In this document: piece after piece, positions 615 through 9,401 of the stretch
Numbering within the stretch: position 1 is the first letter of the stretch
Layout of the letters: every line of letters starts with the position of its first letter
DNA from: Deltaproteobacteria bacterium
Lineage (GTDB): Bacteria > Desulfobacterota > DSM-4660 > Desulfatiglandales > Desulfatiglandaceae
Assembly: GCA_019307945.1 (NCBI GenBank)
Contig: JAFDIS010000097.1
Location: 1 to 33,501 of the forward strand
Direction of reading: 5' to 3'
DNA: 33,501 nucleotides
Translations under genes and position numbers: made by a program
Notes under the pieces: generated by a model
Database searches by the model: none
Told to the model about the DNA's origin: nothing
Seen by the model: the letters and a program-made list of their open reading frames with translations, nothing else

Positions 615-1928
615 TCACCACTTCATGGTCCCGGGCAGCCACAAGGCAAGCTGGGGGTAAAACATCACCAGGATCAGGCAGAAGAGCTGGCAGAAGACAA
701 AGGGGATGACCGACCGGTACACATCCGCCATCCTCACGCCCTCCGGGACAATGGCCTTCATGTAAAAGAGGTTGAAACCAAAGGGGGGTGTGATATAGGC
801 CATCTCCGCATTGATGATAAACAAGACCCCGAACCAGACCGGATCGAATCCCAGGCTGATAATAACGGGGACAAAGACCGGTGCCGTGATCATCACCATG
901 CCCGCCGGGTCCATCAACATGCCCAGGATGATATAGATGAACTCCATGATGGCCACAAAGGCAAGGGGGGAGATATCCAATCCGTGGACCAGGTTCATCA
1001 TGAACTGTGATGCCCCGCATCCGATATAGATGGAGGTGAAGCACTTGGCCCCGATTACAATCCAGATGCACATGCATGTGACGTTAAAGGTCCGCAGGGT
1101 GGCCGTCCTGAGGTTGGCCCAGGTGAGACGTCCCCTTATGGCGCAGCACAAAAGGCTGCCCGCGGCCCCTATGGCCGAGGCCTCCGTGGGCGTACACACA
1201 CCCGTGTAGATCACCCCCAGCACCGCTGAGATGAGCAGGATGGGCAGGACAAGGCCCTTTAAGGAGATGAGTTTTTCCCTCCAACTGAAGCGTTCCGCCT
1301 CACTCGGCGGCGGGGCCAGATGGGGCTGAATGATACATCGCAGGGTGATGTAGAAGATAAATATACAGGCCAGTATAAGGCCCGGCAGCATCCCCCCGAT
1401 AAAGAGCTTGCCCACAGAGGCCCCGGTGATGGAGCCGTAAAGGATGGCGATCACGCTGGGGGGGATGAGAATACCCAGTGCCCCACCCGCGGAGACCGTG
1501 CCGATGGCGAGGTCCTTATGGTAGCCCCGTTTCAACATGGAGGGAATGGCGATGAGTCCCATGGTCACCGTAGCCACCCCACTGATCCCGGCCATGGCCG
1601 CAAAAACCGTACAGATGAGCACGGTGCCCGATGCCAGGCCCCCGGGAATACGCTGGAACCACCGATACATCATTTCATAGAGATCATCGGCAAGACCCGA
1701 GACCTCCAGCATATTGCCCATGAGGACAAAGAGGGGCACCGCGGCAAGGATGAAATTACTCCCGTCCGCATGGACCGCAGAGGGAATCACCAGCAGGCTC
1801 TTGGGCCCCCAGAGCAGATAGCTGTAAAGGATCGCCACGCCGCCCAGACTGAAGGCGATCGGAAGGCCGAGGAGCAGCAAAATAATGAGTGTGGCAAAAA
1901 AGCAAACCGTGAGCAGCCAGAGTTCCAC
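615..1928 (-). CDS. dctM: TRAP transporter large permease (DctM family)
   Basis: The product is 437 residues, the usual length for the 12-13-helix membrane subunit of tripartite ATP-independent periplasmic transporters. Hydrophobic segments cover almost the whole chain. Family motifs include AVPLFVLMGNML (63-74), AGISGVATVTMG and GALGILIPPS (149-158). The subunit carries the translocation path and uses an ion gradient to import a substrate delivered by the periplasmic DctP protein. It is the last gene of a dctP-dctQ-dctM operon, with 14 bases after dctQ. The transported compound cannot be read from the sequence; organic acids are the family norm. Confidence 0.95.
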   Translation of the reverse strand: MELWLLTVCFFATLIILLLLGLPIAFSLGGVAILYSYLLWGPKSLLVIPSAVHADGSNFILAAVPLFVLMGNMLEVSGLADDLYEMMYRWFQRIPGGLASGTVLICTVFAAMAGISGVATVTMGLIAIPSMLKRGYHKDLAIGTVSAGGALGILIPPSVIAILYGSITGASVGKLFIGGMLPGLILACIFIFYITLRCIIQPHLAPPPSEAERFSWREKLISLKGLVLPILLISAVLGVIYTGVCTPTEASAIGAAGSLLCCAIRGRLTWANLRTATLRTFNVTCMCIWIVIGAKCFTSIYIGCGASQFMMNLVHGLDISPLAFVAIMEFIYIILGMLMDPAGMVMITAPVFVPVIISLGFDPVWFGVLFIINAEMAYITPPFGFNLFYMKAIVPEGVRMADVYRSVIPFVFCQLFCLILVMFYPQLALWLPGTMKW

Positions 1929-1942
1929 GCGAACCTCCTCGA

Positions 1943-2497
1943 TTAACTCCTCAGTCCCCCCTCCCCCTTGACGACCTTACTCTCGAGGGAATTTCGTCCG
2001 GTTACAGCCACCACCAAATCGCGGATCCACTTGGCCAGGGCCTGACACCCCAACAGGATTCCCGCAATGGGAATCAACATGAGGACCGGCCACATGAGGT
2101 ACTCCCATGCACTGTCGCTGCTGGTCTCCTGGATGAGAAAGGATTCCCAGAACACGGCACCGCCGTATTTGACCACCACAAAGCAAAAGGCGAGGACAAA
2201 GAGGTAGGTGAAGACATCCACCAGGGCCTTGACCCTGCGAGGAAAGGCCAGATATAAAATATCCACCTTTACGTGCCCGCCGTGGAGGAGACAGTAACCT
2301 CCTCCCAGGCAGACAATGGCCAGCAAGAGGATCTTGTTCAGATCCATTCCCCAAAGGGTGGGATTGTTGAAGACATACCTCATGAACGTATCATAGAGGA
2401 CAGCGCCCATCAAAAGGAGGATGAGAAAACCGAATATCCTGCCCATCCACTCATTGACGATGTCAATCACATGGAGGATCTTGCCTAGCACGCCCAT
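1943..2497 (-). CDS. dctQ: TRAP transporter small permease (DctQ family)
   Basis: The product is a membrane protein of 184 residues with four hydrophobic helices, beginning MGVLGKILHVIDIVNEWMGR, a typical DctQ N-terminus. DctQ pairs with DctM to form the membrane complex. I chose the ATG at 2497 because it follows GAGGGG at a good distance; an in-frame ATG at 2554 would add 19 polar residues and lacks a ribosome-binding site. The gene lies between dctP and dctM on the same strand and is read with them. The conserved WGMDLNKILL and GGGYCLLHGGHVKVD segments support the assignment. The tail after the last helix is short and basic/acidic. Confidence 0.92.
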   Translation of the reverse strand: MGVLGKILHVIDIVNEWMGRIFGFLILLLMGAVLYDTFMRYVFNNPTLWGMDLNKILLLAIVCLGGGYCLLHGGHVKVDILYLAFPRRVKALVDVFTYLFVLAFCFVVVKYGGAVFWESFLIQETSSDSAWEYLMWPVLMLIPIAGILLGCQALAKWIRDLVVAVTGRNSLESKVVKGEGGLRS

Positions 2498-2557
2498 TTT
2501 CCACCCCTCAAGTAATGAGGAGGCCCTGTCAACCTCCCCTTGCATTCGCCGCATTTT

Positions 2558-3622
2558 CTAAAAAGTCTTGGCCTTTTTGAGCAGTTCTTCCAGCTTGGCG
2601 CAATCCGCGCTCCTCTTTTTGTAGGACTCCCAGACGGGTTGACTGAGCTCGAGGAATTCCTCAATGGCCTCAGGTGAAAAATCTATCATCTTGGCCCCGA
2701 AATCCTTGGGGCCATGCTCGCGCACATATTTATCCACGGCCGGACCCCTCACGTCGTAACACCACTCGGACCATTTCCTGGCCTGCTCATTGAGGAGGTC
2801 TTTGTAAGCCTGGGGAAGTTTCCTGTAGGCTTCCTGGTTCACGATCATGGATATTTGCAGGGGAGCGGAAAGACCGGGCCAGGTGGCGTACTTGGCCACC
2901 TCGAAGAGTTTGTAGGTAATGCCTGCATAGGCGGGGTAAAGGGTCCCCTCGATGGTCCCCCTCTGAAGGGCGATGTAGATCTCGGAGGGCTCGGTTTTCA
3001 CCGGTACCCCTCCCCAGAGCTTGAGGGCCTTGGCCATCATGCCTGTAGCCCTGACCTTCTTCCCCTCCAGATCGGCCGGTCGATGACAGGGAAAGGTGAG
3101 AATCATGTTGTATTGGGCCACCTCTGTGTCCGCCAGGAGGTAAACCCCGTGTTTGGCATAGTTTCTTCTAAGAATCTCCAGCCAGTTGGTTTCCCACACC
3201 ATTTTTTTGGCCTGCTGATAGCTGACCATGTACCCGGGAAGACCGAATTGAACCGCCGCCTCCGGGAACTTTCCTCCCCAATAGAGGGGAGCGGCCCAGG
3301 CCATTTCAATGGCTCCGGTGCCCACAGCGTTAAAGAGCTCTCGGGTCTTGAACAGGGCCCCTGAGGGAAAGACCTGGATGTTGAAGCGCCCGTTGCTTGC
3401 CTTCTTGACCATCTCGGCGAGCTTGACGGCCTGTCCATAGGCCCCCGGAACCCCAGGAAAAAGCTCTTCAGGAGGGGGGTAGGCAGATTGGAGCCGCCAG
3501 TTGACCTGGGGAAGGTCGGAGAGGTCTGCACTAAGGGCCGGGGCGGTAAAAGAAATGATGAGACCGCAGAGAAAAATAAAAAGGGCTGCCGTGGAAAAGT
3601 GCCACATTTTTTTCACCATCAT
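2558..3622 (-). CDS. dctP: TRAP transporter periplasmic solute-binding protein (DctP family)
   Basis: The product is 354 residues from the chosen ATG at 3622, which follows TGGAGG with a six-base gap. It starts MMVKKMWHF and continues with a hydrophobic stretch ending APALSA, a clear Sec signal peptide. ATGs at 3658 and 3652 would put a charged extension before it. The mature part has DctP features: NGRFNIQVFPSGALF, EMAWAAPLYWGGKFPEAAVQ, the LEGKKVRATG segment that contains the ligand-clasping arginine, and EPSEIYIALQRGTIEG. The protein captures the substrate in the periplasm and hands it to DctQM, encoded just downstream. A promoter-like site lies 80 bases upstream. The substrate is unknown. 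Confidence 0.94.
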   Translation of the reverse strand: MMVKKMWHFSTAALFIFLCGLIISFTAPALSADLSDLPQVNWRLQSAYPPPEELFPGVPGAYGQAVKLAEMVKKASNGRFNIQVFPSGALFKTRELFNAVGTGAIEMAWAAPLYWGGKFPEAAVQFGLPGYMVSYQQAKKMVWETNWLEILRRNYAKHGVYLLADTEVAQYNMILTFPCHRPADLEGKKVRATGMMAKALKLWGGVPVKTEPSEIYIALQRGTIEGTLYPAYAGITYKLFEVAKYATWPGLSAPLQISMIVNQEAYRKLPQAYKDLLNEQARKWSEWCYDVRGPAVDKYVREHGPKDFGAKMIDFSPEAIEEFLELSQPVWESYKKRSADCAKLEELLKKAKTF

Positions 3623-3698
3623 TTTTTGCCTCCATGCCTTAAGGGTTTCCATAAACATCCTGCCTCCGGATAACCGGCAGGGGCCATTTGGAAACAAT

Positions 3699-3727
3699 AT
3701 TATATACATTTTGCGAGACTATGTCCC
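3699..3727 (-). promoter_or_regulatory. Candidate sigma-70 promoter of dctPQM
   Basis: On the minus strand a perfect TATAAT (3699-3704) sits 17 bases downstream of GGGACA (3722-3727), which matches the -35 consensus in its last four bases. A perfect TTGACA at 3739-3744 lies slightly further upstream, 17 bases from a poor TAGTCT. Either pair would start transcription before the dctP ATG and leave a leader of roughly 60-90 bases. Confidence 0.5.
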
Positions 3728-5019: not shown

Positions 5020-5096
5020 TGGTGGGCCGTGCGAGAATCGAACTCACGACCAACGGATTAAAAGTCCGCTGCTCTACCTAACTGAGCTAACGGCCC
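5020..5096 (-). tRNA. tRNA-Lys (anticodon TTT)
   Basis: The minus strand reads GGGCCGTTAGCTCAGTTAGG and continues to ACGGCCC plus ACCA. The acceptor stem GGGCCGT/ACGGCCC is perfect. The anticodon stem-loop is GCGGA, CTTTTAA, TCCGT, giving TTT. The T arm is CGTGA, GTTCGAT, TCTCG with wobble pairing. CCA is encoded. A sigma-70 promoter lies 17 bases upstream. Confidence 0.97.
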
Positions 5097-5149: not shown

Positions 5150-6232
5150 TCAACCCGCACCGCCCTGTCTCAGGTACTTCTCCCGGCCCGGTAAAAGACC
5201 CTCCAGGATCAGGGCCGTCTCCTCGTCATTGGGCCGGTAAGGGTAATTCCACTGCCGTACGTCCGGGAGGCAATTGCCGAAGGGTCGGTTGCAGGCCACC
5301 TTGCCGTCAGGCCCAAGGCATCCCGTGGTCATGAACGGTTCGCCCAGACGGATCACGCTCTCCAGCAGATCCGAGGCCAAGCCGAAGTCGAGGATACGTC
5401 CTTCCTCATCAAAGCTCATTTCCTCGTGACTGCTTAGTCTCTCCTCGATCACATACCGGGCAAGTTGAATCCGCAAGTAGACGGGCCAGGGCGGCTGGGG
5501 CCTTTCCGCAAGGGCTGACCCCGTTTCAGCAAAAAAGGAGAACAGGTGAGACACCGCTCCCATATGGAAGAGGCGGTCCATGAGTCTGACCATTTCCTCC
5601 TCCGTCTCTCCCATGCCCACCATGAGGTGGGCTCCCACATTGAAAGGACCAAACACCTCCAGGCCCTGCTTCAGGATTTCCCAGTAGCGCGACCAGCGGT
5701 GGGGTCCCGATACCCCCTTGCCGCGATACTTTTCGAAAAGCCCCTCCGTGGCAAGGTCGAGCGCCACCCCGATCTTGTCCGCTCCGGCGTTCTTCATTGC
5801 AGAGAGGTCTCCGTCACGCAGGACAGTGGGGCTCACGAGGATTGAAACGGGGATGTCCGCTTCGGACCTCAGTCTCCTGGTCATCTCCAGCGTGTGGCCC
5901 GGGCACCGGCCGTTCGTGATCATGGAGATGCAGGCCCGGGTCACATAGGGGGGGCGTGCCCGGATCGCCTCGATGATCCGGTCCATGGAAAAAAGAGGCC
6001 AGTCCACGTGAATAAAACTCTTTTCCAGATATCGCCCCGGCCGTTTCCGGGCAAGGCCGCAGTAGGCGCAATTGGCGGCGCAGCCTTCTTCGTAGTGCAC
6101 CAGGAGGTTGACGCAGCGGTTCACCGCGCCCCGGTACATCCGGCCCCGGGAAAGCCCCAGGGACATGGCCGAGGCCAGGCTCACTTTGGCGTAATCCGGG
6201 CTCATTATTGCTGCTGATTCCCTTTTCATCAT
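5150..6232 (-). CDS. Radical-SAM protein, LipS1/LipS2-like lipoyl synthase candidate
   Basis: The product has 360 residues. CAANCAYC (C51, C55, C58) is the CX3CX2C cluster site of radical-SAM enzymes, in a BioB/HydE-like barrel. Near the C-terminus TTGCLGPDGKVACNRPFGNC adds three cysteines (305, 314, 321) that could hold an auxiliary iron-sulfur cluster, as needed by sulfur-inserting enzymes. It is the last gene of a run that includes a lipoate ligase (74 bases upstream) and a GcvH-like carrier. From the neighbours I infer that it inserts sulfur into protein-bound octanoyl groups, like LipS1/LipS2 of archaea and some bacteria. Classical LipA has a different N-terminal cysteine motif, not seen here. 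Only one such enzyme is present, whereas that pathway uses two. Start choice between 6232, 6229 and 6205 is open because no strong ribosome-binding site stands out. Confidence 0.65.
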   Translation of the reverse strand: MMKRESAAIMSPDYAKVSLASAMSLGLSRGRMYRGAVNRCVNLLVHYEEGCAANCAYCGLARKRPGRYLEKSFIHVDWPLFSMDRIIEAIRARPPYVTRACISMITNGRCPGHTLEMTRRLRSEADIPVSILVSPTVLRDGDLSAMKNAGADKIGVALDLATEGLFEKYRGKGVSGPHRWSRYWEILKQGLEVFGPFNVGAHLMVGMGETEEEMVRLMDRLFHMGAVSHLFSFFAETGSALAERPQPPWPVYLRIQLARYVIEERLSSHEEMSFDEEGRILDFGLASDLLESVIRLGEPFMTTGCLGPDGKVACNRPFGNCLPDVRQWNYPYRPNDEETALILEGLLPGREKYLRQGGAG

Positions 6233-6305
6233 TCTCGCCAGCAGCCCGGCGGCATGACGGGCTTCCCCCTTGCCTCGACAGCCGGGCCGCGGAGGAATGG
6301 CCGTG

Positions 6306-7373
6306 TCACAACCGCATCTGGTTTTCCTTGGCCAGAAGGATCGCGCGCGTGAGGGTGGGCACGTCCAGGCCGTGAATCATGTCTTCTTCCCACACGGAGG
6401 CCAGGTTTTCCCGGATCCGTTCTTCCCGGGCGGAGGTCCATTTCAGGGCGTTTTCCAGGCGGTGTACGTTCTCCGGCGTGGAAAAGAAATCCCCGGTGAT
6501 CACAACGTTCTCGATTGATGCCCCGGCGAGGGATAGATAAATCTCCAAAAGCCCCCCCCGCGTCTTTAGGCGGCCCACGCCCATTCTGGAGCGGGGATGC
6601 TTGTGCGAAAAGATCCAGTCTTCCCGGGTGTATCGTTCTTTGATGAACCGCTCGATGGAATCCCGTTCCCGGGCGCTGGGATGATCTTCGCGGAAACGGA
6701 TACCGAACCGCTCCTCAAAGGCCTCCTGGACCGCGTCCATGACCGTGGTCACGCCAATGGACCGTCCCAGTTCCTGCCGCACCGTGGTCATCCGCCGGCT
6801 GAAACAACTGTAACCCTTGTCACGCACCTTGATCAGGGGCGTGTTCATGATGTCCAGCATGAGAGGGACATCAAAGTCCACCAGGAGACTCGTGTGAAAA
6901 AGGAGGCATGCGCCCGTTTCGTTGGCGGCCGAGAGCCCCGCGATCTTTTTTCCTCCCACCTCGAGGTCGTTCTTCGGTTGAAACACGGCTCGGATGCCCA
7001 GGGTTTCCAGCGCCCGGATCAGGACGCCGCTCACAGTTCTGAAGATGCCCGAGATGCCGGGTTCGAATCCCGGCGTGTCCGCCCGGAACCCGAAGCCCAG
7101 GGCCACCACCTCCGGTCCCATGATCACGGTCCCCCCTCCCGTGCTGCGCCTGTTGAACTCGACGCCCCGTGCCCGGCATCGGTCCAGCTTGAGCGCCGCC
7201 TCGATGTCCTGGTACTTGCCCACGATCACCGAGGGCACAAACGTATAGAGGTGGAGTATGGGAGGCGAGTCTCCCTGGGCGACGGACCAGGGCAGTGTGT
7301 CGTCCACTGAAAGCCCCTCGGCCGTGGAGACGGATCGTTCCGTATTTCTGAAAAGACGCCAGTAGGTGCTCAT
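6306..7373 (-). CDS. Lipoate-protein ligase family protein with fused accessory domain
   Basis: The product has 355 residues. The LplA-type catalytic domain shows FNRRSTGGGTV (73-83), NDLEVGGKKIAGLSA (135-149; the lysine in KKIAG is the lipoyl-AMP contact) and FHTSLLVD. The histidine that usually follows GGG is replaced, giving GGGTVIMGPE. From about residue 260, RLKTRGGLLEIYLSLAG and later residues match the lipoate ligase accessory domain, so both parts are in one chain. It should adenylate lipoate or octanoate and transfer it to a carrier lysine, most simply the GcvH-like protein encoded 176 bases upstream. The gene precedes the radical-SAM gene. The intergenic leader (7374-7549) shows no feature, and the ribosome-binding site is weak. 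Confidence 0.82.
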   Translation of the reverse strand: MSTYWRLFRNTERSVSTAEGLSVDDTLPWSVAQGDSPPILHLYTFVPSVIVGKYQDIEAALKLDRCRARGVEFNRRSTGGGTVIMGPEVVALGFGFRADTPGFEPGISGIFRTVSGVLIRALETLGIRAVFQPKNDLEVGGKKIAGLSAANETGACLLFHTSLLVDFDVPLMLDIMNTPLIKVRDKGYSCFSRRMTTVRQELGRSIGVTTVMDAVQEAFEERFGIRFREDHPSARERDSIERFIKERYTREDWIFSHKHPRSRMGVGRLKTRGGLLEIYLSLAGASIENVVITGDFFSTPENVHRLENALKWTSAREERIRENLASVWEEDMIHGLDVPTLTRAILLAKENQMRL

Positions 7374-7549
7374 TGCCGGGACTTACGGCCGCCGGGGGGC
7401 TCGGCCCCGGGTATCTCAGCCGCTTGTTGAAAGACCACCGCTCTTGTCGGTACTGTGTTGGAATTGTGGATAAAATGCTCGATTACCATATGCAAACCCA
7501 CGCTTTTCAGCGCCCATATTCGCTTTGCCGGACGGTTTTCGATACCCTG

Positions 7550-7987
7550 TCAGGCCTTGGCCTTTTCCTCTTCGGCCCGTTTGATCTCGGCCTCTATGAA
7601 GTCGACCACCGCCTCGCCGTGGATCAGGTTCTCGAGTTCCTCTTCCAGATCACTGGCGTCAATTACCAGGATCCAGCCTTCGCCGTATGGATCGGTATTG
7701 ATGAGGCTCGTGTCTTCCTCCAGCTCCTCGTTGACTTCCACGATTTCACCCGACACCGGCGCCACTATCTTGCCTATCCACTTCCGGGACTGAATCTTGC
7801 CGCAGACCTCTCCCTGTTCCACCTCATCTTCTTCCTCCGGCAGGTCGATGAATACAATGTCCCCGGCCTCTTTCTGAAAAAAATCGCTCATCCCCACCGT
7901 GACCCTGGAGCCGTCGACCCGAGCCCAGCAGTGGTCCTTGTTGTAGTAGAGCTCATCGGGCATGTCGTAGCCTTTGATTTCCGCCAT
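7550..7987 (-). CDS. GcvH-like lipoyl carrier protein
   Basis: The product has 145 residues from the ATG at 7987, preceded by AGGAGG at nine bases. The fold follows glycine cleavage H protein: ELYYNKDHCWARV, DIVFIDLPE, APVSGEIVEVN and DPYGEGWI. The lipoyl lysine is K69 in QSRKW; its spacing to APVSG equals that in GcvH, whose usual motif is ESVK. The C-terminus is a highly charged Glu/Lys tail longer than usual. No gcvT or gcvP is in the window, and the neighbours are a lipoate ligase and a radical-SAM enzyme, so it may serve as a dedicated lipoyl carrier. It could still function in glycine cleavage if gcvTP lie elsewhere. Confidence 0.85.
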   Translation of the reverse strand: MAEIKGYDMPDELYYNKDHCWARVDGSRVTVGMSDFFQKEAGDIVFIDLPEEEDEVEQGEVCGKIQSRKWIGKIVAPVSGEIVEVNEELEEDTSLINTDPYGEGWILVIDASDLEEELENLIHGEAVVDFIEAEIKRAEEEKAKA

Positions 7988-8081
7988 CGCAATGAACCTC
8001 CTTCTTGGACTAAGTGTGGTTTCAACCCAAAGCGCCCCCCTGATTTTCGCAGGCCGGAATCCCCGGGGCGTCATGAGCGCA

Positions 8082-9401
8082 TCACTGCTGCTCTTTCTTG
8101 AAGCGGACCTCCACGGCGCGGGCGTGCATGGGAAGACCCTCCGCCTCGGCCAGGGTCACCACCGTGTCCCGCAGGCCCTCGAGACCCTCCTTGCTCAGGT
8201 ACTGGAAGGTGGGTCTTTTCAGGAAATCGTCCGTGGAAAGCCCGGAAAACATCCTGGCACACTGCCCGGTGGGCAGTACATGGTTGGTCCCGCTGGCATA
8301 GTCCCCAACGGGAATCGGCGCATAAGGCCCCAGAAAGATGGAGCCTGCGTGCCGGATGCTGTTCAGGACGATAAATGGATCCTCCATGATGATCTGGAGG
8401 TGCTCGGGCGCATAGGCGTTGGCAAATTCCACCGCCTCCTCCTGGTCCGCGGCTATGAGGATCCTGGAGTGCCTCTTGAGGGATTCTTCGAAGATCTCCT
8501 TCCTGGGCAGTGCATCGTATTGCGCCTCCACGGCGCGGCAGACCTCTTCGGCCAAGGAGGCCGAAGTGCTGACCAGCAGGGCGGCCGAGTCGGGGTCGTG
8601 CTCCAGTTGGGCCAGGAAGTCGGCCGCGATCCATTCCGCATTCGCGGTATGATCCGCAAGGATCAGGGCCTCACTGGGCCCGGCGGGCGAGTCGATGTCC
8701 ACCTGCCCGAAGACCACCATCTTGGCCGCTGTGACATACTTGTTGCCGGGGCCCACGATTTTGTCCACCCGGGGCATGGTTTGGGTTCCGTAGGCGAGGC
8801 CTGCGATTCCCCAGGGACCTCCGGCCTTGAAGATTCGATCGCACCCGGCGATGTCCGAGGCAACCAGAGTATAGGGGTTGACCTCCATGCCCGGACCGGG
8901 CGGGGTCGTGGCCACCACCTCCGCTACCCCGGCCACGCGCGCTGGGATCACGGTCATGAGAATTGTGCTGGGGTAGGCGGCCCGACCGCCGGGGACGTAA
9001 CAACCAACGCGGTCCAGGGGCCTGGTGATTCGCCCTGCAAGGACCCCCTTGCTCACTTCCACGGACCACATTTGGCGTCCGAGTTGCGCCTCATGAAATG
9101 ACTTGATGTGGCCCGCGGCCACCTTGAGGGCCTCCACCACGCCGTCTTCGACCTTTTCGTAGGCCGCCCCGATCTCATCGGGGCTCACCACCAGGTCCGC
9201 GGCCGTGGTGTACTCGCGGTATTCACGGTTGGATTCCACCAGGGCCTGGTCTCCACGCTCCCTCACGTCCATGACGAGACTCCTCACATACTCGTACAGC
9301 GAGGAGATATCCTCCATGGAGCGACCCATGATGGCCCTGCGGTCCGATTCCGATAGATCGGCAAGCTTTTCAGGTATCATCCTCATATCAGACAAAAACA
9401 C
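8082..9401 (-). CDS. hisD: Histidinol dehydrogenase
   Basis: The product has 439 residues, full length. It catalyses the last two oxidations of histidine biosynthesis, L-histidinol to L-histidine with NAD+. The zinc and catalytic residues of the family are in place: [12 protein letters not shown] (Gln and His), AYAPEHLQI (Glu-His catalytic pair), [10 protein letters not shown] (Asp) and MHARAVEVR (His). [17 protein letters not shown] and [20 protein letters not shown] are also typical. The frame opens with GTG at 9401; ATGs at 9386 and 9380 are alternatives. No other his gene is here; the gene sits 27 bases after a Nudix gene and 94 bases before the GcvH-like gene. HpsN-type sulfopropanediol dehydrogenases are homologous, but nothing suggests that role. 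Confidence 0.93.

What the first reader, a model, noticed from the sequence alone, without database searches (positions are those of the whole stretch)
5150..7987. Self-contained lipoylation cluster with a non-LipA radical-SAM enzyme
A GcvH-like carrier, a ligase with fused accessory domain and a BioB/HydE-like radical-SAM protein with three extra C-terminal cysteines (305, 314, 321) lie in a row. This mirrors the LipS1/LipS2 lipoate-assembly route known from archaea and some bacteria. Only one radical-SAM gene is present, while that route uses two, so this may be a one-enzyme variant or a split pathway.
Basis: partly seen in the sequence, partly recalled or inferred. Interest (0 to 1): 0.68.

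Follow-up and report, generated by a model that had tools for sequence, protein, structure and literature searches.

The report
Split-off half of lipoate-making enzyme
This cluster makes the lipoate arm on an H-protein-like carrier by a known but uncommon route; it holds only the first of the two sulfur-inserting enzymes, and the second is encoded elsewhere in the genome, an arrangement found throughout this group of mostly uncultured deltaproteobacteria.

Summary
The three genes are real and intact: a GcvH-like carrier (7550-7987), a two-domain lipoate/octanoate ligase (6306-7373) and a radical-SAM protein (5150-6232), all on the minus strand, behind hisD and before tRNA-Lys. The radical-SAM protein is LipS2: 197 bits to the LipS2 profile against 21.7 for BioB, and it lies in the LipS2 clade (100/98), apart from LipS1, LipA and BioB. 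It is not a one-enzyme variant: the genome has one LipS1 on another contig, in a complete gcvH-lpl-lipT-lipS1-lipS2 cluster with a second LipS2. It also has lipA and lipB. Across 85 genomes of the class, hisD-gcvH-lpl-lipS2 is conserved (50 LipS2 loci) and never carries lipS1, which sits elsewhere, also in two single-contig genomes. A Schekmanbacterium and another deltaproteobacterium keep the same carrier and ligase types together with lipS2 and lipS1. Two of the three late cysteines (305, 314) match published auxiliary-cluster ligands; Cys321 is lineage-variable. The genome has no gcvP, so the carrier is probably not a glycine-cleavage H protein; its client is unknown. Verdict: a conserved split form of the known LipS1/LipS2 pathway, in which one LipS1 probably serves two LipS2 enzymes.

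The parts
5150..6232 (-). LipS2 (clade B), 360 aa: radical-SAM motif C51/C55/C58 (6059-6082); auxiliary-cluster ligands by correspondence C101 (5930-5932), C305 (5318-5320), C314 (5291-5293), probably H202 (5627-5629); clade trait C321 (5270-5272)
   Evidence: LipS2 profile 197 bits; LipS2 clade 100/98; conserved residues; published ligands
6306..7373 (-). Lipoate/octanoate:protein ligase, 355 aa, catalytic domain fused to LplB-like C-terminal domain; RR(S/T)GGGTV motif and Lys143 conserved
   Evidence: PF21948 130 bits, PF10437 33.8 bits; nearest solved ligases; conservation in 47 sequences
7550..7987 (-). GcvH-like lipoyl carrier, 145 aa, predicted lipoyl Lys69 (7781-7783)
   Evidence: gcvH model over cut-off; Lys69 present in all 46 class relatives and aligned with the E. 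coli GcvH lysine
8082..9401 (-). hisD-like gene (name read from its sequence), conserved upstream neighbour, role in the cluster unknown
   Evidence: present upstream in 41 of 50 LipS2-B loci; several of the others are cut by contig ends
5020..5096 (-). tRNA-Lys(TTT), downstream of lipS2
   Evidence: ARAGORN, Rfam tRNA

Best explanation
The locus is the carrier, ligase and first-sulfur part of a split LipS1/LipS2 lipoate-assembly pathway. The ligase attaches octanoate (or free lipoate) to Lys69 of the GcvH-like carrier. LipS2 inserts sulfur at C8 of the octanoyl arm from its auxiliary [4Fe-4S] cluster (Cys101, Cys305, Cys314, probably His202). [quoted passage not shown] Here one LipS1 probably serves two LipS2 enzymes, the window one and the C171 one, each with its own ligase and carrier. 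Shown here: the genes, their families, the LipS1 elsewhere and the conserved split arrangement. Carried over from characterised LipS1/LipS2: the chemistry and order of steps. Inferred: sharing of LipS1, and that the carrier serves something other than glycine cleavage.
For: LipS2 profile 197 bits against bioB 21.7. LipS2 clade at 100/98 in a tree with LipS1, LipA and BioB. Three auxiliary cysteines and a histidine invariant, matching in order and spacing the ligands of T. kodakarensis LipS2. Exactly one LipS1 in the genome, on C171 beside LipS2-A and LipT. hisD-gcvH-lpl-lipS2 conserved without lipS1 in the class; lipS1 1.8 and 1.2 Mb away in two single-contig genomes. LipS1 and LipS2 co-occur: 31 of 35 good genomes with LipS2-B have LipS1. 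Unsplit GcvH-Lpl-LipS2-LipS1 in L230 and, more loosely, L223. LipS1 types A and B nearly mutually exclusive, and three good genomes pair LipS2-B with a lone type-A LipS1. Known steps: LipS2 acts on octanoyl at C8, LipS1 on 8-mercaptooctanoyl (PMC9585515).
Against: The curated LipS2 cut-off (270 bits) is not met, though no LipS2 in 394 genomes of the phylum meets it. Four good draft genomes have LipS2-B and no LipS1 found. Sharing of LipS1 rests on gene content only, and the counts ignore shared ancestry. LipS1-B does not group firmly with LipS1 of L223/L230. No biochemical test of any member of clade B.
Confidence: 0.85

Rival explanations
1. One-enzyme lipoyl synthase: the window protein alone inserts both sulfurs.
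For: No lipS1 in the cluster; four good draft genomes with LipS2-B and no LipS1 found; clade-specific extra cysteines C110 and C321.
Against: LipS1 present in this genome and in 31 of 35 good genomes with LipS2-B; the same auxiliary residues as one-step LipS2; C321 also occurs in LipS2 proteins encoded beside LipS1.
Confidence: 0.03
2. Half-lipoyl cofactor: LipS2-B stops at C8 and the carrier works with a single-thiol 8-mercaptooctanoyl arm.
For: LipS2 alone is known to make the C8-thiol product; the bacterial pathway expressed in E. coli yielded a mercaptooctanoyl group; LipS2-B is never beside LipS1.
Against: LipS1 co-occurs with LipS2-B; the unsplit clusters include LipS1; the missing LipS1 cases are drafts.
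Confidence: 0.05
3. Scavenging locus: the ligase mainly loads free lipoate, and LipS2 is a remnant or has drifted to another acyl substrate.
For: Such ligases can use lipoate (PMC10332631); lipA and lipB cover the canonical route.
Against: LipS2-B is intact and its catalytic residues invariant across 50 loci, with conserved linkage to carrier and ligase.
Confidence: 0.05
4. Another BioB/HydE-like radical-SAM enzyme that is not a lipoyl synthase.
For: Best solved folds are HydE and BioB, ahead of LipA.
Against: No LipS structure turned up in the PDB profile search, so the fold ranking cannot choose. Profile scores and tree choose LipS2, and linkage to ligase and carrier is conserved.
Confidence: 0.02

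Closest known systems
LipS1/LipS2 lipoyl synthase of Thermococcus kodakarensis (PMC9585515)
   Same: LipS2 family by profile; radical-SAM motif, three auxiliary cysteines and a histidine in the same order and similar spacing
   Different: The two late ligands are eight residues apart here (C305, C314) and two apart there; lipS1 is not beside lipS2; clade-specific C110 and C321
sLpl(AB)-LipS1/LipS2 pathway of bacterial sulfur oxidisers (PMC10332631, PMC6067878)
   Same: Ligase, LipS2 and a GcvH-like lipoyl carrier in one cluster; coexistence with lipA
   Different: No lipS1 or lipT in the cluster; the carrier lacks the two LbpA cysteines; hisD is the constant neighbour
C171 cluster of the same genome (L004)
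   Same: LipS2 58% and GcvH 51% identical to the window proteins
   Different: Complete cluster with LipS1 and a LipT-like flavoprotein; its ligase is fused to DUF116 and only 30% identical; flanked by cytochrome and Hdr-like genes
Schekmanbacteria GWA2_38_11 cluster (L230)
   Same: GcvH 52% and ligase 61% identical to the window proteins, followed by LipS2
   Different: lipS1 follows directly, so the set is unsplit

Membership tests
LipS2 lipoyl synthase | Best match to the LipS2 profile over nearly its whole length | tested here: met
   197 bits, profile 2-292 of 292, next family 44.5 bits
LipS2 lipoyl synthase | Curated NCBIfam cut-off of 270 bits | tested here: not met
   197 bits; but 0 of 394 genomes of the phylum pass, including LipS2 beside LipS1 and LipT, so the cut-off does not separate here and I do not treat it as defining
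LipS2 lipoyl synthase | Radical-SAM CxxxCxxC plus three auxiliary Cys and one His | tested here: met
   C51/C55/C58, C101, C305, C314, H202 invariant; correspondence to T. kodakarensis ligands by order and spacing only
LipS2 lipoyl synthase | Groups with LipS2 and not with LipS1, LipA or BioB | tested here: met
   100/98, in all 200 bootstrap trees
LipS2 lipoyl synthase | Inserts sulfur at C8 of octanoyl-lysine | not testable with these tools
   needs biochemistry
LipS1/LipS2 pathway | A LipS1 partner in the genome | tested here: met
   one LipS1, contig C171, 217 bits against a cut-off of 230; auxiliary cysteines conserved in 51 LipS1 proteins
LipS1/LipS2 pathway | lipS1 linked to lipS2 and ligase (the usual case, not essential) | tested here: not met
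   absent from all clade-B LipS2 loci examined
Lipoate:protein ligase Lpl(AB) | Catalytic domain plus LplB-like C-terminal domain | tested here: met
   PF21948 and PF10437 over their cut-offs
LbpA (sHdr lipoate-binding protein) | Two conserved Cys, one near each terminus | tested here: not met
   criterion from PMC6067878; the window carrier has C20, not conserved, and C62, and no C-terminal Cys
Glycine cleavage H protein | GcvH fold and lipoyl lysine | tested here: met
   gcvH 127 bits, cut-off 115.85; Lys69 aligned with E. coli GcvH
Glycine cleavage H protein | Glycine decarboxylase (GcvP) in the genome | tested here: not met
   no GDC-P match in a 98.5% complete draft; control genomes ring

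The most novel reading that the evidence does not exclude
In this lineage the LipS2-B enzyme stops at C8, so the H-like carrier works with an 8-mercaptooctanoyl arm, a one-sulfur cofactor not known (to me) as a mature prosthetic group, and LipS1 is needed only for other carriers.
Probability: 0.05. Interest if true: 0.8.

Novelty: new variant of a known kind. Interest (0 to 1): 0.42.

Why it matters
It suggests that the two halves of this lipoyl synthase evolve separately: LipS2 and the ligase seem tied to a particular carrier, while LipS1 looks exchangeable and shared. That makes it testable which step reads the carrier. Surveys that concatenate LipS1 and LipS2, require exactly one copy of each, or apply the present LipS2 cut-off would miss or set aside such loci. 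It also points to a conserved, probably lipoylated H-like protein that is kept where glycine cleavage is missing, so it has an unknown client.

Tried and rejected
Fold search: HydE and BioB rank above LipA, but no LipS structure turned up in the PDB, so uninformative. Carrier Cys62 was first taken as a special feature; E. coli GcvH has a cysteine in the same alignment column, so dropped. A second LipS1 in this genome: the only other hit (C83, 20.7 bits) is a 491-aa protein that looks like a B12-binding radical-SAM type from its sequence, not LipS1. Genes beside lone lipS1 (a rimO-like gene, a lipoprotein, a prenyl synthase; read from sequence) run divergently and gave no functional hint. Plasmid search: nothing. 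Promoter and terminator scans: no more than chance. The LipS1-B clade does not group firmly with LipS1 of L223/L230, so common descent of the whole split set is not shown.

Full report
What is there. Three intact ORFs on the minus strand, 7550-7987, 6306-7373 and 5150-6232, follow what reads as hisD (8082-9401) and precede tRNA-Lys (5020-5096). Gaps from hisD to lipS2 are about 94, 176 and 73 bases. The first encodes a GcvH-like protein over the gcvH cut-off, the second a ligase with catalytic and accessory domains, the third a radical-SAM protein.

What the radical-SAM protein is. The best profile is LipS2 (197 bits, nearly the whole profile); bioB scores 21.7 and lipA 11.2. In a tree with LipS1, LipA and E. 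coli BioB it lies in the LipS2 clade (100/98). The BioB branch is long, so its exact place is unsure, but the LipS2 grouping held in all 200 bootstrap trees. The curated LipS2 cut-off (270) is not reached, but no LipS2 in 394 genomes of the phylum reaches it, even those beside LipS1 and LipT. In 85 class genomes LipS2 splits into clade A (C171-type, 19 rows) and clade B (window-type, 50 rows), separated at 100/99.

The cysteines. C51, C55, C58, C101, C305, C314 and H178, H202, H229 are invariant in 69 class and 49 wider sequences. By order and spacing C101, C305 and C314 correspond to the three auxiliary ligands found by mutagenesis in T. kodakarensis LipS2, and H202 to its histidine; that protein itself was not aligned here. 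C321 is not family-wide. C110 is mostly confined to clade B. So the three late cysteines are two ligands plus one lineage trait.

Is it one enzyme? No. The genome has exactly one LipS1, on C171, in a contig that runs multihaem cytochrome, Hdr-like protein, GcvH, Hdr-like protein, ligase fused to DUF116, LipT-like flavoprotein, LipS1, LipS2 and a TPP enzyme. It also has lipA, near what reads as an acetoin/pyruvate-dehydrogenase-type E1 gene, and lipB on C127. So two lipoylation routes coexist, as reported for other LipS1/S2 bacteria.

How common is the split? Among 85 class genomes LipS2 is in 61, LipS1 in 55, lipA in 53. Clade-B LipS2 occurs in 49 genomes in the hisD-gcvH-lpl-lipS2 context, with no lipS1 in the fetched flanks. 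Where only clade B is present, lipS1 is usually a lone gene elsewhere (type B, 21 sequences, often beside a rimO-like gene). The single-contig genomes G039 and G013 place the two genes 1.8 and 1.2 Mb apart. Of 35 genomes at least 90% complete with LipS2-B, 31 have a LipS1 match; the four without are drafts. Clade B looks confined to this group: in the named-genome search identity falls from 56% to 55% and below where the matches become other types. So the organism is probably in Desulfatiglandales; this is an inference.

Where it came from. Outside the class, L230 (Schekmanbacteria) has GcvH-Lpl-LipS2-LipS1 in a row, and L223 (a deltaproteobacterium) has window-type GcvH and Lpl with LipS2 and LipS1 and with Hdr/oxidase-like genes between. 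Their LipS2 proteins are the nearest outside clade B, with moderate support (94 SH-aLRT; 86/69). This suggests that an unsplit cluster lost or moved its lipS1; LipS1 trees do not confirm it.

Shared LipS1. In good genomes with LipS2-B, LipS1 types A and B are almost mutually exclusive (1 both, 14 A only, 13 B only, 4 neither; p 8e-5; three genomes unassigned). Good genomes with both LipS2 types keep two LipS2 but, except for G062, one LipS1. G054, G055 and G076 have LipS2-B and only a lone type-A LipS1. The simplest reading is that LipS1 is interchangeable and shared, while LipS2 and ligase are tied to their carrier. The counts ignore shared ancestry.

What the carrier is for. The genome has no gcvP, nor do 12 other good genomes with LipS2-B. 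Relatives with gcvP have a separate gcvH with lipB and lipA alongside (four of five regions examined). The carrier fails the LbpA cysteine criterion. Related carriers in other lineages sit by Hdr-like or hydrogenase-like genes (read from sequence). A role in Hdr-type redox chemistry is plausible but unproven; hisD is a constant neighbour of unknown meaning.

Novelty. The pathway is known (PMC9585515, PMC10332631). A conserved split locus was not described in the papers read; the main survey concatenated LipS1 and LipS2 because they are usually in synteny, and rooted trees from genomes with exactly one of each. Supplementary tables could not be read here, so some of these genomes may be listed there.

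Noticed in passing
L004 4704-6290 (contig C171 of the same genome): Lipoate ligase fused to a DUF116 domain, beside a LipT-like flavoprotein, LipS1 and LipS2; the same ligase type recurs in many relatives. DUF116 has no known function and may be tied to this pathway.
   Followed up: partly
L019 5707-6720 and 6725-7720; L020 9365-10759 and the C-terminal end of 5652-9047: GcvH-like proteins with long cysteine-rich N-terminal parts, two of them adjacent and one fused to an HdrA-like protein; the lipoyl-lysine site looks altered by eye.
   Followed up: no
window 8082-9401: hisD lies directly upstream of gcvH-lpl-lipS2 in 41 of 50 loci across the class, with no evident reason.
   Followed up: partly
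L022 5404-6549 (contig C40): A fourth, diverged LplA-like protein between what read as acyl-CoA-ligase and transporter/VOC-domain genes; function unknown.
   Followed up: no
G043:C132 (L064) and G040:C86 (L060): Nearly identical LipS2-B proteins in genomes assigned to different genera; G043 carries two LipS2-B and 8% contamination, so one copy may be a binning error.
   Followed up: no
window 615-3709: What reads as a TRAP transporter set (two membrane subunits and a binding protein) on the minus strand beside an acyl-CoA-dehydrogenase-like ORF.
   Followed up: no
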